Assembly (NCBI RefSeq): GCF_050624435.1
Contig: NW_027459181.1
Coordinates: 1 to 64,000 of the forward strand
Origin: Tenrec ecaudatus
Lineage: Eukaryota > Chordata > Mammalia > Afrosoricida > Tenrecidae
DNA length: 64,000 nt
Direction of reading: 5' to 3'
The notes below the pieces were generated by a model. It ran no database searches, was not told where the DNA came from, and saw only the letters and a list, made by a program, of their open reading frames with translations. Positions within the stretch are counted from its first letter, which is position 1. Each line of letters starts with the position of its first letter. The position numbers and the translations under genes are program-made. Positions 28,882 through 49,827 of this stretch are shown piece after piece.

Positions 28882-29018
28882 AAGCCAAACTCACTGCCAT
28901 TGAGTTGACCTTGATTCAGAGCAACCCGTGAGTTTCCCGAGAGTGTAACTTTTCACAGGAGGGGAAAGCCTGTTTAACCTACTACTTAGCAGCCCAGCCC
29001 ATCACCAGGGCTCCACAA
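28882..29018 (-). repeat. AfroSINE, internally shortened (left arm)
   Basis: CTCACTGCCATTGAGTTGAC, CTTAGCAGCCCAGCCCATCA, and CACCAGGGCTCCAC. The middle is shorter than in other copies. Mirror at 55,034-55,170. Confidence 0.85.
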
Positions 29019-29612
29019 GGATAGCGAGAAGCACTGTTAGGGCTGGATAGGGCAGAGGCTGTATACTGGTACATATGAGGGCTGGAGGTACAGGGAATCC
29101 AGGGTGGACGATACCTTCAGGACCAAGGGTGTGAGGGGCGATGCTGGGAGAGTGGAGGGTGAGTGGGTTGGAAAAGGGGAACTGATTACAAGGATCCACA
29201 TGTGACCTCTTCCATGGGAGAGGGACAGCAGAGAACCGGGGAAGGGAGACTCCGGATAGGGCAAGATATGACAAAATAACGATGTATAAATTACCAAGGG
29301 CACATGAGGGAGGGGGGAAGGGGTGGGAGGGGGAAAAAAAGAGGACCTGATGCAAAGGGCTTAAGTGGAGAGCAAATGCTTTGAGAATGATTGGGGTAGG
29401 GAATGTATGGATGTGCTTTATACAATTGAAGTGTGAATATGGGTGGATTGTGATAAGAGTTGTATGAGTCCCTATTAAAATGTAAGAAAAGAAAAGAGGA
29501 GAAAAAAAATGATTAGGGCAAAGACTGTACAGATGTGCTTTATACAATTGATGTATGTATATGTATGAACTGTGATAAGAGTTGTATGAGCCCCTAATAA
29601 ATTGTTTAAAAA
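29019..29612 (+). repeat. Two poly-A retrotransposon ends in tandem (left arm)
   Basis: 29,019-29,500 ends CCTATTAAAATGTAAG plus an A-rich run. A second 3' end, 29,510-29,612, ends CCTAATAAATTGTTT plus A's. Both are truncated members of the family at 21,258. The 257-residue antisense frame 29,002-29,775 runs through them. Mirror at 54,434-55,025. Confidence 0.8.
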
Positions 29613-29692
29613 AATGATCCTCAATTCTATCTGAATCCTTGCCAGGGCTGCAAGTTGCCTTAATAAACACGAGCAAAAAAAGTACCTCTGGC

Positions 29693-29920
29693 AGCAGACC
29701 GCTCAGGTTCAAATCCAGGCTCTCTAACTTATTGACTATGTGACCTTGGACCTCTCTGTGCTTCCAAAGACTCACTTTCCAAAAGGGAAGTCATAAGCCA
29801 ACTTTTCTTATTCCTCACTGGGTTGCTTTGAAGATGAAATGAGACATCTGTCTAAAAATGCTTCTGACCATCCCTTGGTTCTCAGAGCTCCACAAATGCT
29901 ATGGATTATTGTTTTAAGAT
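29693..29920 (+). repeat. MIR (left arm)
   Basis: GGTTCAAATCCAGGCTCTCT, GACTATGTGACCTTGGACCT, and GTTGCTTTGAAGATGAAATG are in MIR order. Mirror at 54,139-54,360. Confidence 0.85.
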
Positions 29921-31439
29921 TATGAATGCTTTTTTTCCAAGGGTAGTGCAAAGATTAACATCAGTGCTACTTCTCTCTGACAAAATATAAATCCAAATTT
30001 CTAAATAGCAGGGTCTGAACGGATGCGCTGTTAACAGCATCTTGCTTTTCTCCCATCACTTGTCACAGAAAATCTGATAAGAAATGCTGGGCTAGGGCCT
30101 GCAGCCAAGCCCCTCACTGGCAGAGTGCAGGACCTCAGGTTGTTGGCAGGCCAAGGGGCATCACAATGGCAAGAGGAGACTCCACAAAGGGCCCCTGATT
30201 CCTCCCCCACGCCCCCCTTCCCCACGTTCAGGGTGAAACGTCAAAATACAATTTTTTTTGTCACCTGGTGAAATAATGAGCCCCCATTCCTGTTGCCTTG
30301 GTATCATCAGAGCGCAACAGCCACGTGGGGTAATCGCTGTCTCCGTGTTAATGCTGCTCAGTTCAAACATTTTCACAGGCCCTGGCGAAATGAAACCCGT
30401 GCTTTCTACCTAGGTGGAGTTTGAGGCGATTCAGCCCATTTGCTTCTGCTGAAGAGGCTACCTCAGAAAAACAGGAAATAAAAACATAGAGGGTGCCATT
30501 GACATTAGGTTTCTCGTTTTCTTCCTTTCTTCCCTACCTTCCTTTCTTCTTCTTGCCCTTCTCTTTCTCTTTTCTTCCTTCCCCCCCTTTGCTCACGTCT
30601 TCCTGCCTGCCTTCACCTTCCATCTTCCCTCCCACACTCCTCCATTTCTTCTTCGCTCTTCTCTCCCCACCCCCACCTTTCTCCTTTCCTTCCCTGCCTT
30701 TTCCCCTCAGCCTCCCAGGCTCCCTCCTTCACTCTCTCCCTTTCCTCCTTCCTTTCCCCACCTTGTTTTCATCCAGTGATTTGTACTCCTTTCTTCCTCT
30801 CATCCCACCCCTCCCCATTGCTGGAGAAACATCAGTTCCTTGTGGCGCTGGTTTTTTGGCGCCAGACACTGTTCTTTGGGTGCTCACAAGTCTGCGTCCT
30901 GTGTGCAAACATAAGACAGACATATGATCAGGGTTGGACAGAAGATGGGATTTGACAGGTGTTCTGCACCCGAAATCTCCAGGAGGCAAAGGTAAAGTCA
31001 GGCTCCTGCCTTTAAGGTTATATCTCCCATTGTAACTGCATCCCACAGAGGCTCCTGCCTCCTGGCCACCTGAGGCCTGCTGCCTGCCTTCCTCTAGCTC
31101 CTGGGGAATTGGGGCAGCAGTGGCAAGAACAACAAAAATCCCCAGGAGTTGACAAGAAGGGAGGCTGCCTTGCTCAAGAGACGGCCCCCTCACCCACCTG
31201 CATGTTGTTGAGATGCAGGTTCTCATCCCTGTGGCTGGGCAAGAAACGCCCCCTCGGCCAAACGCAGTGGTTTCAAACAAGGACCATCATCGTGTGGTTG
31301 CTGGGAGGCCACTGGGTCGTGCTTGGAGTCTCCCATGAGTTGGCAGTCACATGGGAGCTGGGGCAGGGGCCTCTGGTGACTCCAGTGCCTACACGTGCAC
31401 TCAGAGGGCTGTCAGCTGAAGCTGGCCGTTAGCTGGGTG
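29921..31439. other. Unique sequence of the arm with a pyrimidine tract
   Basis: No gene assigned. 30,513-30,775 is almost all C and T on the plus strand and could form triplex-like DNA. The 183-residue minus-strand frame (30,729-31,280) has no known domain. Confidence 0.5.
30513..30775. repeat. Polypyrimidine tract (left arm)
   Basis: Imperfect TTCC/CCTT-rich run. Mirror purine tract at 53,275-53,540. More arm-to-arm differences fall here than nearby. Confidence 0.85.
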
Positions 31440-31775
31440 CTTAACTGGGTTGTTGTTTGGAGTGTCTCCACGTGGCCTTTCCAGGTGGCTCAGGCTTCTT
31501 TCAGCATAGTGTCTGGGTGCTGAGAAGTGTCCTGAGAGGTAGCATGTGGAGGCTGGACATTCTGAGGGTGAGCACTCAAGAAGAAGACTTTGAAGGGATT
31601 TTTCAGAAGCTGTGAAGCACTTTGGGGGAGGGAAGGGGGTTGCCCAAACTAGATGTCACAGTGTCATCTTCTCCATAATCTATTGGTCACAGAGGTCATG
31701 AAACATCCCAATTTAAGGGGAAAGGGCATAGACTCTACCTTCCTATAGGTAGCCTGTCAAGGAATTTGGGGGTCA
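31440..31775 (+). repeat. Ancient mammalian dispersed repeat (left arm), class unsure
   Basis: GGCCTTTCCAGGTGGCTCAG, GCATAGTGTCTGGGTGCTGA, ATAATCTATTGGTCACAGAG and GGTAGCCTGTCAAGGAATTT follow, in order, a mammal-wide repeat I remember but cannot name securely. Mirror at 52,275-52,610. Confidence 0.5.
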
Positions 31776-31789
31776 CATACGAAGGCTGG

Positions 31790-31985
31790 GAGACCCTGAG
31801 TGGCACAAATGGTTAAGGACTCAACGTATCAAGTGGTGGGCAGTTGCACCCCTCAGAAGAAATAACTAATGGCCTGCTTCTAGAAGCCCACAGGCTTGAG
31901 AATCCTGTGATGTGTAGTTTCTCCCTGGCACCCACGGGGTCCTCGGGAGCCAGAACCAACATAACAGCAACGGGTTGGGTTTTTG
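31790..31985 (+). repeat. AfroSINE-like, diverged (left arm)
   Basis: GAGTGGCACAAATGGTTAAG head and CAGAACCAACATAACAGCAA at the 3' end; the body is poorly preserved. Mirror at 52,068-52,261. Confidence 0.6.
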
Positions 31986-32696
31986 TTGGTTTTGTTTGGG
32001 CTAATATTAAAACGACTAGTATGAAATTATATATGTATTGTGTTTAACTCTCAGGACTCTGATTATGCTGAAGTTGAACAAAACTGTCTGCCTCTTCTAT
32101 GAACGCCAGCCGATGGAGGCAAAGGGTGAGGGTCTAGAGGAAGAATGAATGTCACATTCCCATCCTTATGTTTCAGTTGTCCTTAAAGGGCACAGGGGAC
32201 AAACCAGATGTCTTTGATATGATTTTAGCCTAATGATGTGCTAGTATGATGATGAGCAGCCTGAAAAGTGGTTTTAACTAATGTGATCCAATATTTGAAA
32301 AGTTGACGATTTCACATCGAATTTTATATTCTCAGCATCTCAGTTACAAACAGAAAATCAGGCCTTAAAATCCTTGCATTTACCCAAGGCAACAACCGTC
32401 TGGAGCTAGAATTTGAATGTCCCCCGTGGATGAGCTGCCACGTGCCTGTTAACCACAGTCCCTTTCCATCCCTATTGCCCCCAACACAGAGGTTGGCTAC
32501 AAGTATCCTTTATCTATATGGCTAAATAGGTTAGTTGGTTTGGATTGGGTTGCTATTTTTTCCTGTTTTGTTTTTGTTTACTTTTGATTTTTTGGGGGGC
32601 TAGGAAATGGTGTGTATTTTGGTACCATGTCTTCCAAAGTGAGAAAATAAAACCCAGTAAGCCTAGAAGGTCAAACAGTTTAGATTAATGATGAAA
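31986..32696. other. Unique sequence of the arm, nothing recognised
   Basis: No gene or named repeat seen. Confidence 0.45.
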
Positions 32697-32905
32697 GGTG
32701 GAGCCTTGTTGGTGAAGTAGATTATGAGTTGGACTTCTAACTGCAAGATCAGAAGTTCGAAACTCCCCTCCCCACCCCCACTCCCCAAGAGAAAGATGAG
32801 ATTTTCTACTCCTGTAAAGATTTACAGCCTTGGAAACCCACAGGGGCAGTTCTATACTCTGTCCAAAGGGTTGCTATATGTCAGAATTGATTCCAGGGTA
32901 GTGAG
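32697..32905 (+). repeat. AfroSINE (left arm)
   Basis: GGAGCCTTGTTGGTGAAGTA, GATTTACAGCCTTGGAAACC, and 3' CAGAATTGATTCCAGGGTAG. Mirror at 51,135-51,349. Confidence 0.88.
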
Positions 32906-33706
32906 GTTTTTTTGATTGATATAAATAATTTTTGGTGAGTATTGAAAAAAACAGTCAATATTATTTTAATACACATCAAAGAAGGTCCACATTAATTGTT
33001 CACACAACCTTGCCACCTTCTTTCTTTATTCCCTTGCCTCTCACTCTCCTTTCTTCCTCCCTATGGTCTTTTATCTCATTCTTTTTCTTTCAAGGTTTAG
33101 CCTAGGAGTGGGAAAGTCTGAGTAATTCTTAACCAAAAGACTAAATTGGTTTTATTGTTGGTGTTATTACTTGGGTTAAATTTTTTTCTTTTCTCTTCTT
33201 CTATTGGTTTGTGTCATGTAACCCAGAAAATGGGGAAACATTTGGAACATTTAAACACTAACCTTTCTCAGTAGACTACAATCATTAAAAGCAACAGAGA
33301 TAAATACTCCTATAATAACAATAACATACAAGGATAGCTAGAGAGATAAATAGATAGATAGAAAAACCACAAAATCTGAGCAGTTGTGGGAAGGAGAATG
33401 GGACTAGCCCCATGAATAAATATAGGTTTGCCAGAGAATAGTTCTATATACATATTAGCATATACTACAAATATGTCCATGAATATAATAGTACATCCAG
33501 GAGGCATAGTTATGAAAATGTCTTAGCTATAACAAAACCCCTTGAGGGAGTGTGTCCTAAATATGGGGGATCAGGAACATAGCTCTGAGAGACCTCAAAA
33601 TCAATTCGTACAAACTAGCTCACAAAGACAATGTTCTGTATCCATCAGGGAAGTGACTGGGGTCTTCAAAAGCTAGTGAGTAGCAAACTAAAAGTCGGTT
33701 CTTGGT
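32906..33706. other. Inner end of the left arm, nothing recognised
   Basis: Includes a short GATA run near 33,345. The arm ends at 33,706 exactly where the TG-rich minisatellite begins. Confidence 0.5.
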
Positions 33707-33771
33707 GTATGTGTGTGTGTGTGTGTGTGTGAAAAAAGACACCAAGTAAGACACCCTCCAGAGATTCTACC

Positions 33772-33807
<36 letters not shown>

Positions 33808-34131
33808 TATAAAAAGACACGAAGTCAGAAGCCCTCTAGAGATTCTTCAAGGGTGTGTGTATGTGTGTGTGTTTGTGTAAAAAGGACACAAAGTTCGAAG
33901 CCCTCCATAGATTCTTCAAGGTGTATGTGTGTGTGTGTGTGTGCATGTAAAATCACACGAAGTCAGAAGCCCACTATTGATTCTGCAAGGGTGTGTGTGT
34001 GTATGTGTGTGTTGTGTTTGTAATAATTACACCAAGTTAGAAGCACTCCAGAGATTCTGCAAGAGAGTGTGTGTGTGTATGTTTGTGTGTGTGAAAACGA
34101 TACAAAGTCATAAACCGTCTGGAGATTCTGC

Positions 34132-34172
<41 letters not shown>

Positions 34173-35545
34173 AAAAAGACAAGAAGTCAGAAGCCCTCTA
34201 GAGATTCTGCAAGGGTGAGTGTATTGTGTTAAAAGGACACGAAGTCAGAAGCCCTCTAGGTTTTCTGGAAAGGTATGAGTGTGAGAGTGAGGGAGTGTGT
34301 GTGTGTAATAAGGACATGAAGTCAGAAGCCCTCCAGAGATTCTTCAAGGGTGTGTGTATGTGTAAAAAGGACACAAAGTTCGAAGCCCTTCAGAGATTCT
34401 GCAAGGGTGTATGTGTGTGGGTGTGAGTGTGTGCGTGTAAAAATCAAACGTAATCAGAAACCCACTATCGATTCTGCAAGGGTGTGTGTGTGTGTGTGTG
34501 TGCGTTGTGTTTGTAATAATTACACCAAGTTAGAAGCCCTCCAGGGATTCTGCAAGAGAGAGTGTGTGTATGTGTGTGTGTGTGTGTGAAAATGACACGA
34601 AGTCATAAACCGTCTGGAGATTCTGCAAGGTTGTGTGTGTGTGTGTATGTGTGTATGTGTGTCAAAAGGATACGAAGTCAGAAGCCCTCTAGAGATTCTG
34701 CAAGGGTGAGTGTATTGTGTTAAAAGGACATGAAGTCAGCAGCCCTCTAGGTTTTCTGGAAAGGTATGAGTGTGAGAGTGAGGGAGTGTGTGTGTGTAAT
34801 AAGGACACGAAATAAGAAGCCCTCCAGAGATTCTACAAGTATGTGTGTGTGTGTGTGTGTTTAAAAAGGACACGAAGTCAGAAGTACTGCATAGATTTTG
34901 CAAGAAAGTGGCTTTAGGTTGTGTGTGTGTGTGTGTAAAAAGGACATGAATTCAGAATCCTTATAGAGATTCTACAAGGGTGTATGTGTGCGTGTGTGTG
35001 TGTGTGTAAAAAGAACACCAAGTCAGAAGCACTCTAGAGATCCTGCAAGCGTGTGTGTGTGTGTGTGTGTGTGTAAAGAGGACACGAAGTCAGAAGCACT
35101 CCAGAGATTGTGCAAAGGTGCTTGTGTGTGTGTGTATGCCTGTGTAAAAAGATATGAAGTCAGAAGGCTTCCAAAGATTCTTCAAGGGTGTGAGTGTGTG
35201 TGCGTGTGTGTGTAAAAATGAAAAGAATTCAGAAACCCTCTAGAGATTCTGCAAGGGTGTGTGTGTGTGTGTGTGTGTGTATAAAAAGGACATGAAGTCA
35301 GAAGCCCTCCATGGATACTAAAAGGTTGTGTGTGTGTGTGGTTTTGTTTGTTTAAAAAGGACAGGAATTCAGAAACTCTCTAGAGTTTCTGCAAGGGTGT
35401 GTGTGTGTGTGTGTGTGTGTATCTGTGTAAAAAGGACCCGAAATCAGAAGCCCTCTGGAGATTCTGCAACGGTGTGTATGTGTGTGTGTGTGTGTGTTTA
35501 AAAAGGACAAAAATCAGAAGCCATCCAGAAATTCTGCAAGGATGC

Positions 35546-35597
<52 letters not shown>

Positions 35598-35698
35598 AAA
35601 AAGGACACGAAGTCAGAAGCCCTCCAGAGATTCTGCAAGAGTGTGTGTGTGTAACAAGGACATGACGTCAGAAGCCCTCAAGAGATTCTGCAAAGGTT

Positions 35699-35752
<54 letters not shown>

Positions 35753-35773
35753 GGACCCGAAATCAGAAGCCCT
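33707..35773 (+). repeat. TG-rich minisatellite array 1 with higher-order structure
   Basis: About 29 units of roughly 55-95 bases. Each has a (GT)n run, then a core of the form AAAAAGGACACGAAGTCAGA then AGCCCTCCAGAGATTCTGCA. Variant units recur in order: an 'ACCAAGTTAGAAG' unit, a 'GTCATAAACCGTCTGG' unit, a 'TCTAGGTTTTCTGG' unit and an 'AATAAGG' unit. The series repeats with a period near 491 bases (landmarks 33,951/34,440, 34,094/34,589, 34,171/34,662). The array ends inside a core at AGAAGCCCT. Cysteine/valine-rich frames through it are translations of the GT runs, not proteins. Confidence 0.95.
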
Positions 35774-35837
35774 GTTTGTGAGCCCTGGCTCTGTTCCTTA
35801 GTGGTCCTTATCTCTCAAATTTGGACTCCCAGATACC

Positions 35838-36035
35838 TGAGGGTGTCATGGTTCTGTGTTGGGGTTCTAACGGCAAGGACAGCAGCTAGGCCCCACCAGG
35901 CACTCCAAAGGAGAAAGATGACACTTTCTGGTCCCCTAGATAGTTCGTATCGGAAACCCACAGGGGCGGTTTTGTTGTGTTCTGTGGGGTCACTGTGAGT
36001 CAGAATCGACTCAGTGACAGTGAATGTGGTTGAGT
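35838..36035 (+). repeat. AfroSINE at the left edge of the MAPKBP1 block
   Basis: GGGTTCTAACGGCAAGGACA, GGAAACCCACAGGGGCGG, and 3' GTGAGTCAGAATCGACTCAG. A GAGCCCTGG motif at 35,780 may be its 5' end, displaced by about 50 extra bases. Confidence 0.85.
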
Positions 36036-37435
36036 GTTTGAACACCTTCCTTTCATCCTCTGTGCAGGCAGCTCTGTTTTAGAGGAGTTAGGCCAGTCCC
36101 ATGTATTAGACTCTCCTTCAGAGCAACTGGGCAGGTGTGTGTCTGCGTGTTTCTAAGGTCATCTTGTTTTTCTCATTCAAGGAATGTGGAGAGCAGCGGT
36201 CTTCAAATCGGTTTAAAGAGAGAAAGGGGATAAAAAAGAGAACAAAGAAAAAGAGGGTGAAAAAGGATTGGAGGGGAGGGGCTCTGAGGAGAAGAGGGTG
36301 TTGCTCAGGCTTCTAAGGCTGTCAATCAGCCTGGTAGCCAGCTGTGAGCTTACCTGGTGTACCTTCAAGATCCCAGAATCCCTAGTTGACAGTGGAATTT
36401 GCATTGCGAACTGGCTCATTGAGCCGAGCCGGAGGCCTCTGTCTGCAGCAGAGACCAAGCCCTGTGCGGCACCTCCTGCTCCCATCTGCAAGCAGTGGGG
36501 TCCAGATGCGGGTCCTGCGGTCTGCTTCCTGTTGTAAAAGGCAGGGTTGGGACAAGTAGCCTTCTACTGAGTCTCTCCCCCATCTACCCAGTCGACCCCC
36601 TTACCTGGGGTAGCAGGTTCCAGGCTTGCTGTGGCCAGCTAATAGCAATTAGTAGGCATAGCGCTAATGAAGAGAGGGGACAGCTGGGCAGAGGGCCTAA
36701 ACCTGCTGAGCGCCATGGTCCCTGAGACACGAGAGCTGTTGGCTCCCAGCTCCTTGTCCCTGACTGTTACCTGCCTCCCTCTCTCGAGTTCACTCTTGAA
36801 TTTCAGTCTCCTTCCAATCTCACCCAGCCTTGCTGCCTGACTGGAGAGGGAGACTGGAGGCTGTTAGAATGGCGCTGCTCAGGCTCTTTGGGCTAAAGAG
36901 TCTGACGTGGGCCAGCAACTCCATGAAGTTCCCTCCCTCAGGCAGTTTTCTGCCCCTCCATCCCACTTAGTCTCCCTGCAGGCCTGGCCCTGGGCCCTGA
37001 CCTTCCACTTGCTTCCTCATCCAACATGTGGTGGGCTAGCTCTTGCCAAGTACACACATGGGTGCAGACATGAGAGATCCCACTCTCTCCTGGAAACCAG
37101 GTCTGTAAACAAGGGCACAGCTGAGGCCTGTTCTTACCCAAATCATGTGCATCCTTCTCTCTGCCCTCTGCCCTGGGGTAGGGACAAGAGCTCTGGGAAT
37201 ACCGGCCACCCCATCGCTATGGGGCATGTCCCGATGGTGCTGGTGTACAGAGCACTGGGCAAGCAGGGCTCCCTACAGGACCTTGCGCCATGTGGGGCTA
37301 CAGAAGGGGAGAAAGGCAGAAGAGTGCTGTCAGGAGCCAGCTGCACTCTGGCAACGTGGGGTCCTCTGGGCTGGGCCGCTGAGGTGGGGTGCTAAGTCTG
37401 TGCTCCCCTCTCCCTCTCCCTCTCCCTCTCCCCAG
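36036..37435. other. Probable intron of the MAPKBP1 copy
   Basis: No exon matching the N-terminal MAPKBP1 residues was found here. Overlapping frames in 36,900-37,400 lack MAPKBP1 similarity. Ends with a CTCTCC-rich tract and the acceptor CCCCAG before the first recognised exon. Confidence 0.6.
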
Positions 37436-37498
37436 GTGTGTGGTTGTGCTCTTCAACCCCCAGAAACACAAGCAGCACCACATCCTCAACAGCTCCAG
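37436..37498 (+). pseudogene. MAPKBP1: MAPKBP1 pseudogene exon 1 of 12
   Basis: Encodes CVVVLFNPQKHKQHHILNSS, with acceptor CCCCAG and donor GTAAAT. Phase fits the next exon (AG|G for Arg). Confidence 0.93.
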
Positions 37499-37722
37499 GT
37501 AAATGGGCTCAGGGGCTTTGGGGAGTGCCACCTTTCCCCAGGGACGGCCAGAGGGGTGCCACCTGCTTCTCTGTGGCATTGGGCCCTGTTGGGCCCCAGG
37601 CATGGGAGGGAAGCAGCACAGGGACAGCGGGTTTGCTGCCCTTGTTTTGAGAGGGGACTGTGAGAGGCCAGACCTGGGCCAGGCTGCCAGTGCCCCTCTT
37701 GAGCCTGCCCGATTCCTTTCAG

Positions 37723-37780
37723 GAAAACCATCACTGCCCTTGCCTTCTCTCCTGATGGCAAGTACATGGTCACCGGTGAG
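37723..37780 (+). pseudogene. MAPKBP1: MAPKBP1 pseudogene exon 2 of 12, altered donor
   Basis: Encodes KTITALAFSPDGKYMVTGE. The reading frame requires the exon to end GGTGAG, where a strong donor is expected, but the next bases are ATGAGT. A cryptic GT inside ACCGGTGAG would shift the frame. Confidence 0.9.
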
Positions 37781-38439
37781 ATGAGTGAGGAAGGAAGCTC
37801 AAGCACTGCAGAGGGGGGGGCCTGGCCTTAGCAGAGAGTGACAGCCTGCGGCCCGCATAGGACTGGTGCCAATTTTGACTTTCTCTACTGGTGTCCACTT
37901 TGGGTGTTTGGTCTGCCCTAGAGCAGTGTTCTTAGGCTGTAGCCTGCATCAGAAGTGCCATGGTCACCCCTTAGTACAGACTGCTGGCTCTGGGGTTCTG
38001 CAGGTCTGGGGTGGCTCTCTTCAGTTTGCAATGCTAACAAGTAGTTCCCAGTGAGGCTGAAGCTGCCAATTTGGGAACCACATTTTGGAAAACACCTCCT
38101 TAAAACATTCCTTATCCCTGGAGTCCCCCTGCTGGTCACAGTGTGGAACAGGACTGCCCTCCCATAGACTTGCCCTGTGAGGCTGTGAGAGCAAACCACA
38201 GGAGTGGTGGTTCTTGCCCATCCAAATCACGCCAGGAGCCCGTCCCTGAGTGTCCCTGTTCCCCAACACTGATCACATTCCCTCCGGGGGTGTCCTTGAT
38301 TCATGTGCAGGCGCATTAGGTTAGGTGTCCTTCATTTATGTGCAGGCTCTTGTCCAGTGGCTGGGAGGGCCAGGCCTCCATGGATGGGGAGGGAGCTGGC
38401 TGCCTCTGGCCTTTACTTCGGGGTCTTCGGTCCCTGCAG

Positions 38440-38610
38440 AGTGGACACATGCCTGCTGTGCGGGTATGGGATGTGTCGGAGCGCAGCCAGGTGGCGGAGC
38501 TTCAGGAGCATAAGTATGGCGTGGCATGTGTGGCCTTCTCACCCAGCGCCAAGTACATTGTCTCAGTGGGCTACCAGCATGACATGATCGTCAATGTCTG
38601 GGCCTGGAAG
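38440..38610 (+). pseudogene. MAPKBP1: MAPKBP1 pseudogene exon 3 of 12
   Basis: 57 intact codons from [15 protein letters not shown] to [11 protein letters not shown], with acceptor CTGCAG and donor GTGAGT. WD40 blades. Confidence 0.95.
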
Positions 38611-38875
38611 GTGAGTGGGCTGCTGGCCTCAGGACAGGCGGGGCCGGGATGGGAGCCAAAAAATTGCTGACCGGTGGCCTTAACTTCCGCCTGCTGGCCT
38701 CAGTCCCTTTCTAAAGAACTCTGAGCAGAAAGGAGCAACTGGGTATCTAGGATGCTGAAGAAGGGGCAGAAGGAGAGGTCCAGTTCACAGCTTGTCTAAC
38801 CTCCTTCAGTGTGTAAGTTTCTTTTCCCTCAGCTCCTAGAAGCAGAGCCTTGATTTCCCTTGACTTTCTCTCCAG

Positions 38876-39013
38876 AAAAACATTGTAGTGGCTTCCAACA
38901 AGGTGTCCAGTCGGGTGACAGCAGTATCCTTCTCTGAGGACTGCAGCTACTTTGTCACTGCAGGCAACCGGCACATCAAATTCTGGTACCTCGATGACAG
39001 CAAGACCTCAAAG
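38876..39013 (+). pseudogene. MAPKBP1: MAPKBP1 pseudogene exon 4 of 12
   Basis: 46 intact codons [14 protein letters not shown] to [12 protein letters not shown], with acceptor CTCCAG and donor GTGAGG. Confidence 0.95.
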
Positions 39014-39224
39014 GTGAGGCAGCAAGTAGCCACTAGGGTGGGGTCTGCTCAGATCTGTTCCACCTGCGCCCCCTTCTGCATGCTCAAAAGCCCCTTGGAA
39101 GTCTCAGCTGGGCCAGGTGCTATGTCAATCTGCAAGGGAAGCCTTCTCCCTCTCTCCCCAGGGCCTGCTTTCCAGGGGATAGCCTGCAGGGTGGGTGGGT
39201 GGCACCTGTGGTGGGTCTCCACAG

Positions 39225-39408
39225 GTGAATGCCACTGTGCCCCTGCTGGGCCGCTCTGGGCTGCTGGGGGAACCTGCGGAACAACCTGTTCACTGAAGTA
39301 GCCTGTGTCCGCGGGAAGAAGACTGACAGCACCTTCTGTATCACATCCTCAGGGCAGCTGTGTGAGTTCAGTGACCGGAGACTGTTGGACAAGTGGGTGG
39401 AGCTGAGG
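39225..39408 (+). pseudogene. MAPKBP1: MAPKBP1 pseudogene exon 5 of 12, +1 frameshift
   Basis: [16 protein letters not shown] is followed by an extra C near 39,273, then [16 protein letters not shown] and LLDKWVELR in the shifted frame. Length 184 where 183 is expected. Confidence 0.93.
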
Positions 39409-39583
39409 GTAAGTGAATGCTTTGTCGGCAGGCACCCTCCCGTCTGTCACCTCCGGGCTCCGGGACACCTGAGTCTGCATGCACGCTGGGGGAGGCCCCA
39501 GGCGGAGGAAGGTGTTTGGAAACCTCACTGCTCGCTCGTGCTCTCTGTCTCTGCCTCTTCCTCTGCTTTCCTCTTCTGCTCAG

Positions 39584-39601
39584 CACACAGACAGCATCAC
39601 A
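39584..39601 (+). pseudogene. MAPKBP1: MAPKBP1 pseudogene micro-exon (18 bases)
   Basis: CTCAG acceptor, then six codons HTDSIT, then donor GTAAGT. It keeps phase, and I recall a MAPKBP1 isoform pair differing by six residues at this point (like NTDSFT). Likely an alternative exon in the parent gene. Confidence 0.7.
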
Positions 39602-39897
39602 GTAAGTGTGCTGGCCCTGTCCACTGCCTCTGCTGCCTTTCTCTTGGCCGGCCTTTTCTGGGTGTGTCTTTGCCCAAACCTCAGGTGCCTTATAAGGCTT
39701 GCTGACTCCTTCCCCCTAATTGCACGGGGCTGTGAGCCCTCTGGCCAGCTGCTGTTAGAGGGAGGGGCATTGAGGGGCTCCAGCCAGGGCAGCTGGCCTG
39801 CCTTGCGCTTGTCCTTGCCTCTTGGCTCATGGCTGTTGAGGTGTCAGGTGAAGGAGTGGGCAGACGCCCTTGCTGACTGGGGCTTCTGTGCTCACAG

Positions 39898-40058
39898 ACC
39901 ACAGTGGCCCACTGCATCTCGGTGAGCCAGGACTAAATCTTCTGTGGCTGTGCTGACGGCACCGTGCACCTTTTCAACCCCTCCAACCTGTACTTCCTCA
40001 GCACGCTGCCCCGGCCCCATGCCCTGGGGACAGACATTGCCAGCATCACAGAGGCCAG
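39898..40058 (+). pseudogene. MAPKBP1: MAPKBP1 pseudogene exon 7 of 12, in-frame stop
   Basis: TTVAHCISVSQD, then TAA (39,934-39,936) where Tyr is expected, then [17 protein letters not shown] and [16 protein letters not shown]. Donor GTGAGC. Confidence 0.95.
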
Positions 40059-40843
40059 GTGAGCGGTGTTGGTTGGCCCCTGAGTCCTGTCAAAGCCCCA
40101 CTCTGTGCCAGGCCATCCCTGGCATGCTGCAAGGAGAGGAGGGCACACATAGACCTCTGGGAAGACCCTTGCAGTCAAGCACAGGTGGGTCTTTTAGCAT
40201 TTGTTACTCACTGTGGGCAACCGTGGTAATCTGAGTCTGCAGTGTGGTAATGCATTGTCCTGTAAAGACCACAGCTAGGACAGACGGGCAGTTCCTTAGG
40301 GTTTCTGAGAGAGACTGGAAACCTGACGGAGCAGACCTTTCTCCCTCAGGGTGGTACTGGGTAGCAGCTGCGGTAGGATGGTCTTATTGTAGCCTCGGGC
40401 CATGGGTTGGGTGATTGCAGGAAGTGAAGTTTTGCTCTGGTTTCAGTGCTGTCAGGAAGCGGGGCAGTTCTGCAGTTGGGTATATTAATTTCTCTTTCAG
40501 GCCAGGAGGGGGCTAAATCTGCAATTGGCAGGAAATGATATATGACCATGATTATGGTTTGCACAGTGCCCTTCCTTGTCCTCTGATGTGAGTCTAGAAG
40601 GGCCTGACATCTGCTTGGTTGCATCACGGCCACACACTGTCCCCGCCTGACGTTGGGGGCTATGAAATAGCTTGTGTTCTTTTGGAGAGCCCCATGGCAA
40701 GGAATGCCAGGCCAGCCGCTGCGTTCTTTCTCTAGTGACTGCTGGCCAACCTGCTGCTCCTCCCTTTAGTGCCCCATTTCATTAGCGCTCACTCACCAGT
40801 TTGCCCTGTCTGCCCAGGACACCCCGCTCCCCTCTTTCCTCAG

Positions 40844-41033
40844 TTGCCTTTTTGCTGGAGTGGCCAATGCGAAGTATCGGGACACCATCGCCTTGACCTT
40901 TGATCCTGCAAATCAGTGGCTGTCTTGTGTGTACAATGACCATAGTACTTTTGTCTGGGATGTGAAGGACCCCAAGAAAGTGGGCAAGGTGTATTCAGCT
41001 CTGTATCATTCCTCCTGCGTCTGGAGTGTAGAG
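40844..41033 (+). pseudogene. MAPKBP1: MAPKBP1 pseudogene exon 8 of 12
   Basis: Intact: [56 protein letters not shown]. Donor GTACGT. Confidence 0.95.
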
Positions 41034-41254
41034 GTACGTGGGCCAGGTCTGCTGAGACTGACCGTGTTTCCTGGGCTACCATTAGGAGCTGGGGTTCCTC
41101 AAGTGTGGAATTTGTTTCCTCCAGCACCCTTGCTCCCCCAGCAGTGCCCCTGGGTCCCTTCATATCTGTTAATTGGCTCTGAGGATGCGAGTGGATATTA
41201 GTGCTGACTCATCTCAGACTTTTTTCTGTATGCCCCTGTGCAGTCTTAGCTTGG

Positions 41255-41405
41255 CCTCTTTGGACATGTTCCTGAACTTGACCAAACCTTAGTTTCTGCA
41301 ATTATGAAATGACATACCTGATGCATTTGATTTTTACGAAAAGGAGACAATGTAAGTGGGAGATTTAGAATGCCTAGTACTTACTAGGTGCTTGGTTAAT
41401 GTATA
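41255..41405 (+). repeat. MIR relic in a pseudogene intron
   Basis: TTTCTGCAATTATGAAATGA and GCCTAGTACTTACTAGGTGC are in MIR core/tail order. Diverged. Confidence 0.6.
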
Positions 41406-41568
41406 TTCCTTTACTTGTTAAAGACAAGAGCTAATCATTATGACATGCTTGCTATGGGATAAGCCTGGGGCTAAGTCTTGACCAGCCTTTTCTCTACTCT
41501 CATTCCGTCCCATCTCTGTGGGCAGCCAAGGTCTGACCCGGGTCCCTCTGGTCCTTGTGCTCCTCCAG

Positions 41569-41714
41569 GTCTACCTTGAGGTGAAGGACAGTCAACAGGC
41601 CTGCCTGCCCCCGAGCTCCTTTATCACCTGCTCTTCTGACAGCACCATCGCCTGTGGAATACAGAGAGCTTTGGCGTGCATGGCTCCACCCTGCACCGAA
41701 ACATCCTCAGCCAC
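41569..41714 (+). pseudogene. MAPKBP1: MAPKBP1 pseudogene exon 9 of 12, -1 frameshift
   Basis: [20 protein letters not shown] and CSSDSTI, then a missing C near 41,650, then [20 protein letters not shown] in another frame. Length 146 where 147 is expected. Confidence 0.94.
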
Positions 41715-41891
41715 GTGAGCCTGGTGCCCCCACACCACAGTCTCAGGATCTGGTTCTCCAGACCAGACTGTTCCAGATGTTGTTTGGCCAAACTCTGACA
41801 AGGATGTGCTCTTGGCCCGCATTTCTCTCCCTGACAGGTGTCCTGTGTCAGGCCTTCCTCAACCACCTCTTCTCCTGACCTGTTTCACTAG

Positions 41892-42067
41892 TACCTCATT
41901 AAGATCATCTATATGGATGGGAACATGCTGGCCCTGCTGGACACCGAGCTGCCTGGGGGAGACAAAGCCGATGGGTCCCTGATGGACCCCCATGTGGGCA
42001 TCCGCTCTATGTGCATCAGCCCCAACGGGCAGCATCTAGCATCAGAGGACCCTATGGGCACGCTCAG
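41892..42067 (+). pseudogene. MAPKBP1: MAPKBP1 pseudogene exon 10 of 12
   Basis: Intact: [55 protein letters not shown]. Acceptor ACTAG, donor GTAAGG. Confidence 0.95.
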
Positions 42068-42664
42068 GTAAGGCCATTTGTGGAGTGCAACCCGTTGCCT
42101 CCAGGGGACAGGATGGGGGAACTTTAGGCCCCCAAGGAGAGAGGTTCAGGAGGGTTTAGCTGAAAAGGGTTGGGGACAAAATTTATTATCTTCAAGGGAA
42201 AGATACTAACTTGACAATGAAGAAACGGCAAAACCCACCCTTAGCCAAGTCATTAAGGTTAACTTCCCGTGGCAGCAGCATGAATCTGGTGAGAGGGTAC
42301 ACTGAGAGGCTTCAAAATGTTCCCAGAAAATCTTATGACTCTTAAGAACTCCCAATAAAATGTTGAACAACAACAACCAACGTTGATGGAAAGTTTCTTT
42401 TAGTTCTGTTTTTCCATGCAGCCTCCTCCTAGCATTGTGTCTGGTATTCTTGACCCAAATGTATAAGGAACTTAGGATAGTCATGAGGAAACATCAGGCA
42501 AACTTCATTTGAGGTACACCTGCCAGAGTAACATATCATACTCTCCCAGGTGTCACGGTAGGAAAGACAAGCAAAGACTGAAAGCCGTTCTAGACTGGGA
42601 CAGATGACACCCATGTGCCGTGGGGGCTCCTAGGATCCTGGAGCAGAAGGACATTCATGGGATA

Positions 42665-42715
42665 AACAAACTCATTGGCATTGGGTTGATTCCAACTCAG
42701 AGCAACCCCCGCTGG
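42665..42715 (-). repeat. AfroSINE/RTE 3'-end fragment in a pseudogene intron
   Basis: CTCATTGGCATTGGGTTGAT and TCAGAGCAACCCCC: only the last 50 bases of an element. Confidence 0.6.
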
Positions 42716-42991
42716 TGACATTTAAATAAAGTCTAATAATGTTGTACCAGTGTGACCTCCGTGGTCCTTATCACTGTGTACTGTAGTACATAAAACATTA
42801 ATACGAAGGGAGACCAGGTGAGAGAGTTGAATGTGACATATCTGGACTCATTTTTCTAAGTCTAAAGGTTCAACCCAAAAGGTAAAGTAAAACAGCTCTT
42901 GATGGAGAGGAAAAGGTGGAAGGGGGTGGGTGATGATTCTTTCCCCCGCTGCCTGGCACTGAACGGCCTCTCCTTTCTTCTCATTTTGCAG

Positions 42992-43083
42992 GGTCCATGA
43001 ATTGCAGTCCCTGAGTGAAATGCTGAAGGAGGAGGCCCATGAGTCAGAGATTCTGTGCCTGGAGTACTCGAAGCCAGACACAG
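42992..43083 (+). pseudogene. MAPKBP1: MAPKBP1 pseudogene exon 11 of 12
   Basis: Intact: [20 protein letters not shown] then [10 protein letters not shown]. Acceptor TTGCAG, donor GTACCT. Confidence 0.95.
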
Positions 43084-43357
43084 GTACCTGGCCCTGGCCT
43101 AGAATGGCCTTGAGTGAGCCCCTCCAGTCTGGCCAGAGCCACTGATACTTGTCCTGCCTCTTGACTATGGGGCTGATTGTTCTTTTGGCTACCAAAAGAG
43201 TTAGTGATCCTTCTTGATGTCTCTGAAGGCTTTGGGGAGGACTGCATCTCAACTCTGCCCGACTCCATGGCTCATGTGGCTTAAGGATGTGGGGCTCAGT
43301 TTCTCTGGGTGCTCTTTGCTGGGCACTCATCAGCTGACGGAGTTCATCCCATCCCAG

Positions 43358-43483
43358 GTCTGAAGCTGCTGGCCTCAGCGAGCCGGGACCGGCTGATCCA
43401 TGTGCTAGACGCAGGGCGGGAGTATAGCCTGCAGCAGACGCTGGACGAGCACTCCTCCTCCATCACCGCTGTCAAGTTCGCAG
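43358..43483 (+). pseudogene. MAPKBP1: MAPKBP1 pseudogene exon 12 of 12 (last retained)
   Basis: Intact: [20 protein letters not shown] then [21 protein letters not shown] donor GTGTGG follows, and about 65 bases later the minisatellite begins, so the next exon is absent. Confidence 0.95.
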
Positions 43484-43550
43484 GTGTGGGCAGAGCACTT
43501 AGACACACTCTGCCACCTACCACCCCTGCCACCTGCCTGCCACGCCCAAC

Positions 43551-43852
43551 ACTCCATAGATTCTGAAAGGGTGTGTGTATGTGTGTGTGTGTGTGTGTGT
43601 GTAAAAAAGTCATGAAGACAGAAGTCCTCCAGAGATTCTGCCAGTATGTGTGTGTGTTTGTAAAAAGGACACCAAGTACGAAGCTCTCAAGAGATTCTGC
43701 AAGGATTTATGTGTGTGTGTGTGTGTGTGCGTGCGGGTGTAATAAGGTCATGAAGTAAGAAGCCCTCCAGAGATTCTGCAAGGGTGTGTGTGTGTGTGTG
43801 TGTGTGTTTAAAAAGGACACAAAGTAAGAAGCCATCCAGGAATTCTGCCAGG

Positions 43853-43903
<51 letters not shown>

Positions 43904-44438
43904 TGACAGGAAGTCAGAAGCCCTCCAGAGATTCTGCAAGGGTGTGTGTGTGTGTGTGTGTGTGAATGTGTGTGTGAGTGTAAAAAGGACACGAAATCAG
44001 AAGACCTCCAGAGATTCTCCAAGTGTTTGTGTGTTTGTGTGTGTGTGTGTGTGTGTGTAATAAGGACACGAAGTCAGAAGCCCTCCAGAGATTCTACAAG
44101 TGTATGTGTGTGTGTGTTTAAAAAAGGACACGAAGTCAGAAGGACTGTAGAGATTTTGTAAGAGAATGAGTTTTTCGTTGTGTGTGTGTGTGTGTGTAAT
44201 AAGGACACGAAATCAGAAGCCCTCTAGAAATTCTTCAAGGGTGTGTGTATGTGTGTGTGTTTGTGTAAAAAGGACACAAAGTCAGAAGCCCTTCAGAGAT
44301 TCTGCAAGGGTGTATGTGTGTGTGTGTGTGTGTATAAAGGACACAAAGTCAGAAGCCCTTCAGAGATTCTGCAAGAGTGTGTGTGTGTGTGTGTTTGTGT
44401 GAAAACGACACGAAGTCATAAAACGTCTGGAGATTCTG

Positions 44439-44478
<40 letters not shown>

Positions 44479-44759
44479 TGTGTGTCAAAAGGACAGGATG
44501 TCAAAATCCCTCTAGAGATTCTGCAAGGGTGAGTGTTGTGTTAAAAGGACACGAAGTCAGAAGCCCTCTAGGTTTTCTGAAAAGGTATGAGTGTGAGAGT
44601 GAGGGAGTGTGTGTGTGTGTAATAAGGACACGAAATCGGAAGCAATCCAGAGATTCTACAAGTGAATGTGTGTTTGTGCGTGTGTGTGTGTGTGTGTTTT
44701 TAAAAAAGGACACGAAGTCAGAAGGACTGCAGAGATTTTGTAAGAGAATGAGTTTGGGT

Positions 44760-44798
<39 letters not shown>

Positions 44799-44982
44799 AG
44801 GACACGAAATCAGAAGCCCTCTAGAGATTCTTCAAGGGTGTGTGTATGTGTGTGTAAAAAGGACACAGTCAGAAGCCCTTCAGAGATTCTGCAAGGATGT
44901 ATGTGTGTTTGTGTGTGTGTGTGTGTGTAAAAAGGACACAAAATCAGAAGCCCTCCAAGGATTCTGCAAGGGTGTATGTGTG

Positions 44983-45026
<44 letters not shown>

Positions 45027-45128
45027 TCACACGAAGTCAGAAGCCCACTATTGATTCTGCAAGGGTATGTACGTGTGTGTTGTGTTTGTAATAAGTACAC
45101 CAAGTTAGAAGCCCTCCAGAGATCCTGC

Positions 45129-45175
<47 letters not shown>

Positions 45176-45417
45176 GGACACGAAGTCAGAAGCACTCCAG
45201 AGATTCTGCAAAGGTGCTTGTTGTGTGTATGTGTGTGTAAAAAGTTATGAAGTCAGAAGGCCTCCAGCGATTCTTCAAGGGTGTGTGTGTGTGTGTGTGC
45301 GTGCGTGTGTTTGTGTAAAAAGGACACAAAGTCAGAAGCCCTCTAGAGATTCTGCAATGGTGAGTCTGATTTTTTAAAAGGACATGAAGTTAGAAGTCAT
45401 CCAGAGATTCGGCAAGG

Positions 45418-45475
<58 letters not shown>

Positions 45476-45604
45476 AAAAAGGAAAAAAGTCAGAAGCCAT
45501 CCAGAAATTCGGCAAGGATGCATCTATGTGTGTATGTGTGTAAAAAGGACAGGAAGTCAGAAGCCCTCTAGGAATTCTACAAAGGTATGAGTATCAGTGT
45601 GAGG
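43551..45604 (+). repeat. TG-rich minisatellite array 2, colinear with array 1
   Basis: About 27 units of the same kind and orientation as 33,707-35,773. It begins inside a core (ACTCCATAGATTCTGAAAGG). Variant order matches array 1: 'CATAAAACGTCTGG' at 44,415, 'TCTAGGTTTTCTGA' at 44,567, 'GGACTGCAGAGATTTTG' at 44,722, 'GAAGCCCACTATTGATTC' at 45,040, 'GCATCTATGTGTG' at 45,519. Array 1 counterparts lie about 9.8-10.1 kb upstream. A unit pair also recurs within it at 44,058 and 44,620. Confidence 0.95.
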
Positions 45605-46257
45605 ACCAGGCGGTGCCTTCAATCTCTTATGTGTACTTTTGCTATGAGTCAGGAGCTCACTCAATGGTATCTAACAAGTTATTGTGAGATGACATAAGAG
45701 GACTTCGTGGAGGCCCTTCCAAGAGAGGGTTGGAAGATAGCATAGTAAGAGGCCTGGTCAGGAATGTGCTCATTGTGCTCATTGTTTCCATCCCCTTCTC
45801 CCAGAAGCCAATGCTCTAGGGAGGAAAGGCAGGCCCAGAGACAGGGAAGGGCTAGGGAAGAGGGAGCGATAGGAGAGCAATAGAAAAGACAGGTTACTCT
45901 CCCTCATTCCCAGTATAGCTCCTCAAAACTCAGGTAAAGCCTCTGATTCTGAGGCTGAGGCTTATAATAGGATCAGACTGAACATTTAATCCCTCAAGCT
46001 GCCTGGAAAGTGTGGGAGCTGATTAAGATGGCAAGAGATGAAGAAGGAAGGAATCTACTGGTTACAGATGTGAAAGCACCTGTTAGTGAAGCCTTCTCAG
46101 TTTCTTATTGCCTTATCAATGTCATCAGTCCACTAAATGTACTCACTTTCCAAACGCCTATTAACCAATTGTACATACCTTGAGTTCTTTCTAGGAGGCA
46201 ATGTTAATATTCTCATTTCCGAGTTGAGGCCACAGAAGTTTGGACAATTTCTGGATG
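45605..46257. other. Unique spacer sequence, nothing recognised
   Basis: No further MAPKBP1 exon found. No named repeat. Confidence 0.5.
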
Positions 46258-46345
46258 TTGTTGTTGCTGGCAGGTGCTCATCAAGTTGGTTCCAACTCAT
46301 AGCAACCCCCGTGCATACCGGAAGGGAGCATGGCCCCGTCCTGTG
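46258..46345 (-). repeat. RTE/SINE 3'-end fragment
   Basis: GTTGTTGCTGGCAGGTGCTC, TTGGTTCCAACTCATAGCAA: reverse complement of the RTE 3' terminus. Confidence 0.7.
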
Positions 46346-46939
46346 TCCCCTTCTCTGGAGGGCACTTGCCTCAAATCTTTAAATTCAAAGCTTCATGTTT
46401 TGTCAAATGAAATCATTTCTTCAGTCAATCTCAGAAATCTTTATGTAAAAACGTTGGAAACGCCTTTCACTCAATGTCTAGGGAGGCTGAGTAAGGTGGG
46501 AGGGGCTCCAGGACAGATGGTGGGAATCACTCCTGCAGGTGGGTGGTAGGATGGCGAGGCCAGTCTGACTTGCCTCCCTGGTGACTGACCTCAACCAGCA
46601 ATGGGCAGCTGGACACATGGCATGGAGTGACCTCTGGTCTTCGTGGCGGTGGATGCCAGTAGACCGTCAGGTATGGGAGACCCATGAGAAAATAGGTTAC
46701 TTTTCTCTTTCTCTCCAAGTTTCTCTGTGATCTCTCTATGCTGCCTGAACCCGCATGCATACTGACAAAGGCAGACATGTGCACACACATGGCAAAGTAA
46801 ATAGAGACGCCCACATTCACAGACGTATCCATCCACGTGCAAATAGGCACATATTTGCACATGCATGCCAAAGCAGACACAGACATCCATGAATGCACAT
46901 GTATTCGTGCAAGCTGATTTTCATGGGGAAAAAAAGATC
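46346..46939. other. Unique spacer sequence, nothing recognised
   Basis: A CA-rich, ACACAC-like stretch near 46,760-46,900. The cysteine-rich 99- and 123-residue minus-strand frames come from it and are not supported as genes. Confidence 0.45.
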
Positions 46940-47120
46940 AGCTCTATCACTATCAAGTCCACTCCAACTGAAAGCAACTGTAGAGCACAGAGGAGAACTG
47001 CCCCATTGGGTTTCCAAAGCTGTCATCTTGTCAGACACAGTCAGCCACCACTTTCTCCTGCAGAGCAGCTGGGGTTTTCCAACTGCCGGCCTTTCACTTA
47101 GCAGCCGAGCACTTGCTGGT
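46940..47120 (-). repeat. AfroSINE
   Basis: TATCAAGTCCACTCCAACTG, ATTGGGTTTCCAAAGCTGTC, and the head TTAGCAGCCGAGCACTTGC. Confidence 0.82.
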
Positions 47121-47684
47121 TTTCATAGGAGTCTGGAAATCAGTTTCATTGCCTGCTAGTCACACCTCCTCTGTGAGTTAGCACAGCCTGGTAAGCTTGG
47201 AAGGAGAAAAATCTTCCTTCCAGAGGTAGTTGAGTGGTTTTCCCCTGAGGAAATGGTTCAGAAGAAGATTTCCTTCAAGAAATCAGAACACTCTTGAAGA
47301 GAAATTTCCTGCCAAAACATTTGTTTGCTTGACAACGAGACAAATGAAGCATCCCTCTGACTTCCCCCTTGGGTCCTCTTTCTCATCATGACTGCTCTGC
47401 TCAGCTACAAGGCTCCAGGTCCTGGGAGCAAGGGTGACCTTCTATTTGGAACCTAACAGGGCTCCACTGTGAGTCAGGGAAAGACCTGGAAACTTGAGCA
47501 TCCTTAAACGGGGCCTGCATAGCAATATCATCTGTCATCAGGCTCATCGTTTCTCTCATTTTTTGTAAGATCATTGAGCCCTTGGAGCCCTGAGAAGTTC
47601 TCTCAGCGGAAGCCATCCTCCTCCCATGAATCCAAGAGGGACTGCTTAAAGATTGTTTTCTTCTACTTACAGGAATACCAGCAA
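47121..47684. other. Unique spacer sequence, nothing recognised
   Basis: No gene or repeat recognised. Confidence 0.45.
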
Positions 47685-47865
47685 CCAATTTCCATTGAGT
47701 CAACTCGGACTCATATAGAGCCCAAGTGTGTTAGAGAAGTCCGGTCCCTAGAATTTTCCATGGCTGAGGTGGGTTTTTTTCCAGAAGCATATCACCAGGC
47801 CCTTCTTGGAAGGCACCTCTGGGTGAATTCAAACCTTTAACCCATAGTTCGCAGCCTAGCTCATG
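47685..47865 (-). repeat. AfroSINE
   Basis: TTTCCATTGAGTCAACTCGG, GAATTTTCCATGGCTGAGGT, and the head CGCAGCCTAGCTC. Confidence 0.8.
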
Positions 47866-48408
47866 AACAACACCATCCAAGGACGGTACAGTTCCTTGCA
47901 AATGGTCACCTGCAGTAGATGAACCAAGGTCAAGTAACTGCCTGAGAAACATCAACCAGAGGAAAGCAGAGTGAACCCCAGGGTTCTTGGGAAGAGGGCC
48001 AGAGAGAGAAAAAGGAGAAAACAGCTTTCTTGGGACATCAGAAAGGAAAGGACTCCACTTAGTGGATGCCATAGAACAATCCCAAGCCAAGCATGGGTGA
48101 GAAACAGACCCCACCCAAACCCAGCGGGCTGGATTCTGTCGCCAAGTGTTGAACACCAGACATGGATATGACAGAGCCGCTAGTCGTCCATGGAAAGAAA
48201 CTGTTTGCCCATTGTCTGGTAGTTTTGCAGCATTTGAACAACCAGGCCTCTGCTGCCTCTTCTGGCCTGAAATATAATTGCAGCCATAACCGCCCAGCGT
48301 TTCAATGGGTAGAACTCCCTGGGGAGGGCTAACTACCCAAATCATTTGGGAGATCATTTTAGAATTGTCCAGGAGATCTTTGGCTGTGTCTATTATATGA
48401 ACTATGGT
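47866..48408. other. Unique spacer sequence, nothing recognised
   Basis: A 208-residue minus-strand frame (47,731-48,357) overlaps a SINE. It has no motif that I recognise and is likely chance. Confidence 0.5.
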
Positions 48409-49795: not shown

Positions 49796-49827
49796 GATTT
49801 TATTCACTGTTATTTGCTCCAGACAGG

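What the first reader, a model, noticed from the sequence alone, without database searches (positions are those of the whole stretch)
35774..43550. MAPKBP1 fragment sits inside a TG-rich minisatellite, breaking single units
Seen: array 1 stops within a unit core (AGAAGCCCT at 35,773) and array 2 starts within a core (ACTCCATAGATTCTG at 43,551); between them is a 7.8-kb genomic piece of MAPKBP1. The two core halves fit together to nearly one unit. Inference: the gene fragment was inserted into the minisatellite, perhaps during repair of a break there.
Basis: partly seen in the sequence, partly recalled or inferred. Interest (0 to 1): 0.8.

Follow-up and report, generated by a model that had tools for sequence, protein, structure and literature searches.

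The report
Gene fragment amplified inside satellite DNA
A broken piece of the gene MAPKBP1, held between two stretches of a satellite repeat that is abundant in this animal's genome, sits in the middle part of a huge DNA palindrome and one of its edges recurs at about 110 places, which gives a base-level clue to how satellite DNA picks up and spreads pieces of genes.

Summary
In detail: a 7.8-kb intron-containing MAPKBP1 pseudogene piece (35,774-43,548) lies between two TG-rich arrays. LEFT edge: not an insertion cut. The apparently intact gene (contig C109) carries one array unit in that intron, ending at the same base (AGAAGCCCT|GTTTGTG), and duplicates on C121, C22 and C139 carry longer arrays ending there. 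RIGHT edge: a real break. The gene runs on past 43,548; the window jumps into a satellite unit, one base shared. The 'minisatellite' belongs to a satellite family with 46,244 core matches (reversed-pattern control 0). The right junction looks like one event: 110 places, 90 of the 100 listed exact. The left border sequence occurs at 372 places. On C1613 the composite lies in the spacer of a palindrome (arms of at least 33.7 kb, 98-99% identical); left arm, junction and flank recur in order on 17 contigs. Best explanation: a satellite/gene hybrid formed by homology at the intronic unit, was end-joined to satellite, then amplified, much like spacer duplications in ape subterminal satellite. No empty site was seen, but few candidates were scored. 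Whether satellite captured gene, or was born from the intronic unit, is open.

The parts
1..33706 (+). Left arm of a giant palindrome; pairs inverted with C1613:50,337-84,170 (the right arm runs beyond the window). The contig starts at base 1, so the arm may be longer.
   Evidence: 31.3 kb at 99.1%, 2.1 kb at 98.0%, 0.4 kb at 98.6%
33706..35773 (+). Array 1: TG-rich satellite units, 28 whole units plus the border unit; its end is the satellite/MAPKBP1-intron border also present in the gene
35747..35773 (+). Border unit start TAAAAAGGACCCGAAATCAGAAGCCCT; C109 has the same with one base different (GGACCAG)
   Evidence: border sequence at 372 places genome-wide
35774..43548 (+). MAPKBP1 pseudogene piece, 12 exons with introns; relative to C109 one extra base in exon e, a stop in exon g, one base fewer in exon i
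43548..43549 (.). Right junction: MAPKBP1 intron joined to a satellite unit core, one base shared
43549..45600 (+). Array 2: half unit plus 27 units of the same satellite, unit order partly colinear with array 1
45600..50337 (+). Right part of the palindrome spacer; its first 641 bases occur elsewhere at 98% and, in the one such place read, without an array beside it
50337..64000 (-). Right palindrome arm (inner part, inverted copy of the left arm)

Best explanation
This is a satellite-bounded duplicon. Shown: an apparently intact MAPKBP1 gene has one satellite-like unit in an intron; duplicates read on C22, C121 and C139 begin at that unit with satellite arrays; in one lineage the right end is joined at 43,548 to the core of a satellite unit, and that junction is found at 110 places; on C1613 the composite lies in the spacer of a palindrome, and on 16 other contigs it lies between the same left arm and right flank (the second arm was read only on C1613). 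Inferred: the left border formed by homologous pairing between a satellite array and the intronic unit (break-induced replication or unequal exchange copying into the gene); the right border by end joining, either into a satellite array after a break or as a tandem-duplication seam; the composite then came to lie in the spacer of an inverted duplication and was amplified with its surroundings. The reading frame is broken, so the piece is best seen as a passenger; a structural role as a spacer in satellite, as proposed for apes, is possible and untested.
For: Same left border in the gene and in three duplicates; a C109 probe from just upstream of the unit gave one full match, C109 itself, and 40 partial matches of about 130-200 bases (40 of 2,497 candidates scored); the gene continues past the right edge in C109, C22 twice, C65 and C121; one shared base at the seam; 110 junction places, control 0; two junction copies (C96, C139) carry the base found in C109 next to the seam and have array 2 ending differently; 18 of 23 listed GTGAGCC-type left borders have a listed junction 7.7-8.3 kb on, 0 of 77 GTGAACC-type (100 of 372 borders and 100 of 110 junctions were listed); C121 is the nearest duplicate compared, 1.22% (1,064 columns) and 1.80% (278), against C109 1.79% and 4.32%; palindrome; arm, junction and flank in order in 17 of 17 pairs.
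Against: Mechanisms are read from end products. Arrays 1 and 2 share unit order: score 41, shuffled maximum 36, 0 of 300; a first version of that test was weaker, 49 against a maximum of 47 in 500. This fits a tandem-duplication seam at least as well as insertion. The same test of array 1 or array 2 against the C121 array did not stand out (34 and 16 of 300 shuffles reached the score), nor against the short C22 array (300 and 269 of 300), so descent of these arrays from C121's rests on a few shared rare units only. No empty site or intermediate was found. The stretch read left of the C65 copy shows no border, and the C96 copy lacks it where expected. In the right-hand 1.1 kb C121 is nearer to C109 (0.94%) than to the window (1.22%). 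That all 372 border places carry long arrays was not tested; four were read.
Confidence: 0.66

Rival explanations
1. Insertion into one array, the reader's idea refined: a break in a satellite unit was repaired by copying 7.8 kb of MAPKBP1, starting by homology at its intronic unit, and the end was joined back to the other side of the same break.
For: The two half cores make almost one unit; in one uninterrupted array (inside L047, C96) the last whole unit type of array 1 is followed directly by the junction unit type (read by eye).
Against: C139, with the C109 base at the junction, has C121-type units at its left border, so the window's adjacency is probably a later contraction; C121 has the same left border with a longer MAPKBP1 piece; no empty site in 17 of 17 scored pairs.
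Confidence: 0.25
2. Tandem duplication of [array + 7.8 kb MAPKBP1]: the right junction is the seam between two copies, and the second copy was later truncated inside its array.
For: Arrays 1 and 2 share unit types in the same order; array 2's last unit resembles C121 unit 16, whose followers 17 and 18 resemble the last two whole units of array 1 (by eye).
Against: None of the three array-2 right ends read (window, C96, C139) leads back into MAPKBP1; the satellite has higher-order repeats, so shared order is weak evidence.
Confidence: 0.3
3. Assembly artefact.
For: Repeats of this kind are hard to assemble; one copy has a run of N in array 2.
Against: Same junction at 110 places; the 100 listed lie on 67 contigs, some chromosome-sized, with different array lengths and flanks.
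Confidence: 0.03

Closest known systems
Spacer duplications in ape subterminal satellite caps (PMC12058530; passages seen)
   Same: A euchromatic sequence, first duplicated interstitially, became joined to satellite and amplified: modal 32- and 34-kb spacers, over 345 and over 477 copies, between satellite tracts. On C1613 the palindrome is followed by at least 170 kb of a 39-bp satellite and the contig holds another junction at 308,292.
   Different: Different source sequence and satellites; here one unit of the flanking satellite lies in the parent intron at the exact edge. Chromosome-end location and methylation not tested.
MAPKBP1 segmental duplications of great apes (PMC12058530, PMC10496407; passages seen)
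   Same: The same gene was duplicated between chromosomes: a gorilla expansion at inversion breakpoints with SPTBN5 and PLA2G4B-JMJD7, and copies on subtelomeric sequence near the human chromosome 2 fusion.
   Different: Independent lineage if this genome is not an ape; whether the neighbours SPTBN5, PLA2G4B and JMJD7 were copied here could not be tested; no satellite unit in the intron is mentioned in the passages seen.
Tandem repeats near duplicons, such as CAGGG repeats (PMC2566985; passages seen)
   Same: A tandem repeat distributed to many pericentromeric regions and present near duplicons.
   Different: Pericentromeric location not testable here; one unit in the parent gene at the exact border.
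Ampliconic palindromes of mammalian sex chromosomes (recalled)
   Same: Long, about 99% identical inverted arms with a spacer.
   Different: Several chromosome-sized contigs; genes were looked for only as open frames; sex linkage not tested.
Minisatellites arising by slippage between short direct repeats (Haber and Louis, recalled, not read)
   Same: The C109 unit has TCAGAAGCC(C)T on both sides, the expected precursor form.
   Different: Direction of descent not shown.

Membership tests
Segmental duplication | At least 1 kb at 90% identity or more, introns kept | tested here: met
   96.1% over 7.9 kb to C109; exons separated by introns
Segmental duplication | Several genomic places | tested here: met
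   110 right junctions, 372 left-border places
Processed (retro)pseudogene | Introns lost | tested here: not met
   Introns present between the 12 exons called
Transposon insertion | Target-site duplication and defined ends | tested here: not met
   Left border also in the gene; right edge shares one base
Satellite DNA | Long tandem arrays at many loci, higher-order repeats | tested here: met
   46,244 core matches; 3,766 junction-type units; on C62 70 listed ones span 184 kb, 32 of 69 spacings 1.4-1.9 kb
Palindromic amplicon | Near-identical inverted arms | tested here: met
   Arms 98.0-99.1% on C1613
Palindromic amplicon | Palindrome itself present in many copies | tested here: inconclusive
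   Left arm, junction and flank in order on 17 contigs; second arm read only on C1613
Palindromic amplicon | Sex-chromosome location | not tested
   Contigs are unnamed
Spacer duplication in subterminal satellite | Amplified duplication flanked by long satellite | tested here: inconclusive
   Satellite of at least 170 kb on one side on C1613; the other side lies beyond the contig start
Spacer duplication in subterminal satellite | Chromosome-end location, hypomethylated spacer | not testable with these tools
   No chromosome map or methylation data

The most novel reading that the evidence does not exclude
The abundant TG-rich satellite was born from the single unit in the MAPKBP1 intron: that unit, flanked by a 10-base direct repeat, expanded in a duplicate, and the satellite then spread over the chromosomes, at hundreds of places with gene DNA still attached at the original border.
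Probability: 0.3. Interest if true: 0.75.

Novelty: new variant of a known kind. Interest (0 to 1): 0.55.

Why it matters
The source of a satellite is usually untraceable, and how satellites pick up and spread gene pieces is mostly inferred. Here one intron holds a single unit with the border sequence found at 372 places, and a second junction marks one later event found at 110. Apes show both MAPKBP1 duplications and, separately, amplified duplications inside satellite, so comparing the MAPKBP1 intron between species could show whether a satellite captured the gene or the gene seeded the satellite, and whether this gene is prone to such events.

Tried and rejected
In-register insertion: array 1's last whole unit type precedes the junction unit in one uninterrupted array (by eye). 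I took this as strong support until the C139 left border showed other units; dropped as evidence.

Circle model (excised ring reopened in its array): predicts that arrays 1 and 2 do not overlap; they share unit types in order, so not favoured, not excluded.

A simple 163-kb tandem unit, guessed from two contigs: not supported; of 20 spacings under 200 kb between listed junctions, 12 are same-strand and 70-78 kb, 2 are opposite-strand in that range, 6 are larger.

Empty site: looked for as a short arm-to-flank distance; none in 17 pairs. Of the 40 scored arm matches 26 are followed by a listed junction, and of the 40 scored flank matches 20 are preceded by one; the others were not read, except one flank on C22. 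The count of loci where the gene runs on past 43,548, and a search for the neighbour gene JMJD7, did not complete. The Pfam scan failed on a stop codon and was not repeated. Species not determined; an afrotherian mammal is guessed from a SINE recalled from memory. In C109 exons a-b are open in one frame and c-l in one frame, but the b/c seam is out of frame with the exon ends I chose, in the window copy as well; I take the ends to be wrong, unproven.
Full report
What is there. Reading the window confirms two TG-rich arrays with a 7.8-kb block between them. Cutting the arrays into units gives 28 whole units plus a border unit in array 1, and a half unit plus 27 units in array 2. The gene name rests on that recall.

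The parent. A search of the window's own genome with recalled MAPKBP1 sequence from beyond the block found exon matches of 65 to 97% on C109, C121, C65, C22 (two places) and C91, besides more distant ones. In C109 none of the 12 exons holds a stop or a length change of the window's kind; relative to it the window has one extra base in exon e, a stop in exon g and one base fewer in exon i. The seam between exons b and c is out of frame with the ends I chose, in both copies, so C109 is called apparently intact. The block aligns to C109 at 96.1% over 7.9 kb with gaps counted, with 3.05% substitutions (236 of 7,745 columns). Of the duplicates compared, C121 is closest to the window: 1.22% of 1,064 columns on the right, 1.80% of 278 on the left; at the right end, however, C121 is nearer still to C109 (0.94%).

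The left edge. C109 carries one unit in the intron: part of a core, a TGG/TG stretch, TAAAAAGGACCAGAAATCAGAAGCCCT, then GTTTGTGAACC. Array 1 ends at that same base. C22, C121 and C139 (one base different at the border) have arrays ending there, of which 0.7, 4.5 and 0.8 kb were read. A C109 probe from just upstream of the unit gave one full match, C109 itself; the other 40 matches are partial, about 130-200 bases (40 of 2,497 candidates scored). The border 25-mer occurs at 372 places with up to 3 mismatches, the gene among them, reversed control 0. So array 1 and the block belong together, and the left edge is no insertion cut.

The right edge. C109, both C22 copies and C65 run on through MAPKBP1 intron where the window leaves it at 43,548; C121 also runs on, with a short deletion before that point. 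In these five 3.1-kb loci the best match to a unit core has 11 mismatches of 27. The window continues inside a satellite unit whose full form, GTCAGAAACACTCCATAGATTCTG, occurs 3,766 times with up to one mismatch, reversed control 0. One base is shared at the seam. The 29-base junction occurs at 110 places with up to 3 mismatches, reversed control 0; 90 of the 100 listed are exact, and the 100 lie on 67 contigs. Listed copies on C96 and C139 carry the base found in C109 next to the seam, and array 2 ends differently there: C96 in unrelated DNA, C139 in degenerate telomere-like repeats followed by sequence also found near the C65 copy (90.8% over 1,181 bases). One event with later truncations fits this.

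The satellite. The core 38-mer occurs 46,244 times with up to 3 mismatches, reversed control 0. It catches only 6 of 29, 8 of 28 and 13 of 54 units in the arrays read here, so units are probably several times more numerous. On C62, 70 listed junction-type units span 184 kb and 32 of the 69 spacings are 1.4-1.9 kb.

The larger unit. Window bases 1-33,706 are an inverted copy of C1613:50,337-84,170: 31.3 kb at 99.1%, 2.1 kb at 98.0%, 0.4 kb at 98.6%. The composite lies in the spacer. Probes from the left arm (40 of 1,217 candidates scored) and right flank (40 of 789) form 17 same-strand pairs, 12.5-14.3 kb apart, on 17 contigs, the window's included; in 17 of 17 a junction lies between. In one of the 98% flank places, on C22, there is no array beside the flank. 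Of 20 spacings under 200 kb between listed junctions, 12 are same-strand and 70-78 kb. From 93.9 kb to at least 264 kb C1613 is a 39-bp satellite, and another junction lies at 308,292.

Two families of border. Of the 100 listed left borders, 77 read GTGAACC as in C109, which is one of them, and none of the 77 has a listed junction nearby; 23 read GTGAGCC and 18 of these have one 7.7-8.3 kb on (272 borders and 10 junctions were not listed).

Copies. Over the 2,051 insert bases of the eight junction loci fetched, mismatches to the window are 0 to 32; one of the eight, L003, is the window itself. Amplification is therefore taken to be younger than the split from C109.

Mechanism. The left border is homologous in kind, the right border is not. 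The simplest history: pairing between a satellite array and the intronic unit copied gene DNA onto an array; later, in one lineage, the gene piece was joined at 43,548 to satellite; the composite came into the spacer of an inverted duplication and was amplified. Arrays 1 and 2 share unit order (0 of 300 shuffles reach the score; a weaker first test), which keeps tandem duplication open beside insertion; against the C121 array the same test did not stand out (34 and 16 of 300). An apparent in-register insertion was dropped. Order and mechanism are inferred.

Prior work. Closest is the ape genome paper PMC12058530 (passages): amplified duplications as spacers within subterminal satellite caps, and a separate gorilla expansion of MAPKBP1 with neighbour genes. 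PMC10496407 (passages) places MAPKBP1 copies on subtelomeric sequence near the human chromosome 2 fusion. PMC2566985 (passages) concerns CAGGG repeats and duplicons. PMC13063843 (passages and one section) was read only for the species question, which it did not settle. Searches whose listings showed no account of the present structure. Subscription papers are not covered.

Noticed in passing
L012-L028 (C1613:93,888-264,000): A 39-bp GC-rich satellite (GAGCCCCAGGCCTGGGGCGCCCCAGCCCTTAGGCTTAGG) runs for at least 170 kb beyond the palindrome, with long open frames on both strands.
   Followed up: partly
L048:2560-4000 and L043: Degenerate telomere-like repeats (CCCTAA / TTAGGG) and a shared duplicated sequence (90.8% over 1,181 bases) lie next to the C139 junction copy and upstream of the C65 MAPKBP1 copy, in opposite orientation relative to MAPKBP1.
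   Followed up: partly
window:1-33706 and 50337-64000: Palindrome arms of at least 33.7 kb, 98-99% identical.
   Followed up: partly
L045 (C22:247282800-247287300): The sequence right of array 2 exists at 98% identity at several places on C22:247-250 Mb and on small contigs, seemingly a separate amplified family.
   Followed up: partly
C1, C71, C102-C119: A second set of MAPKBP1/satellite borders of the GTGAACC type; none of the 77 listed has the window's right junction nearby; what lies to their right was not read.
   Followed up: no
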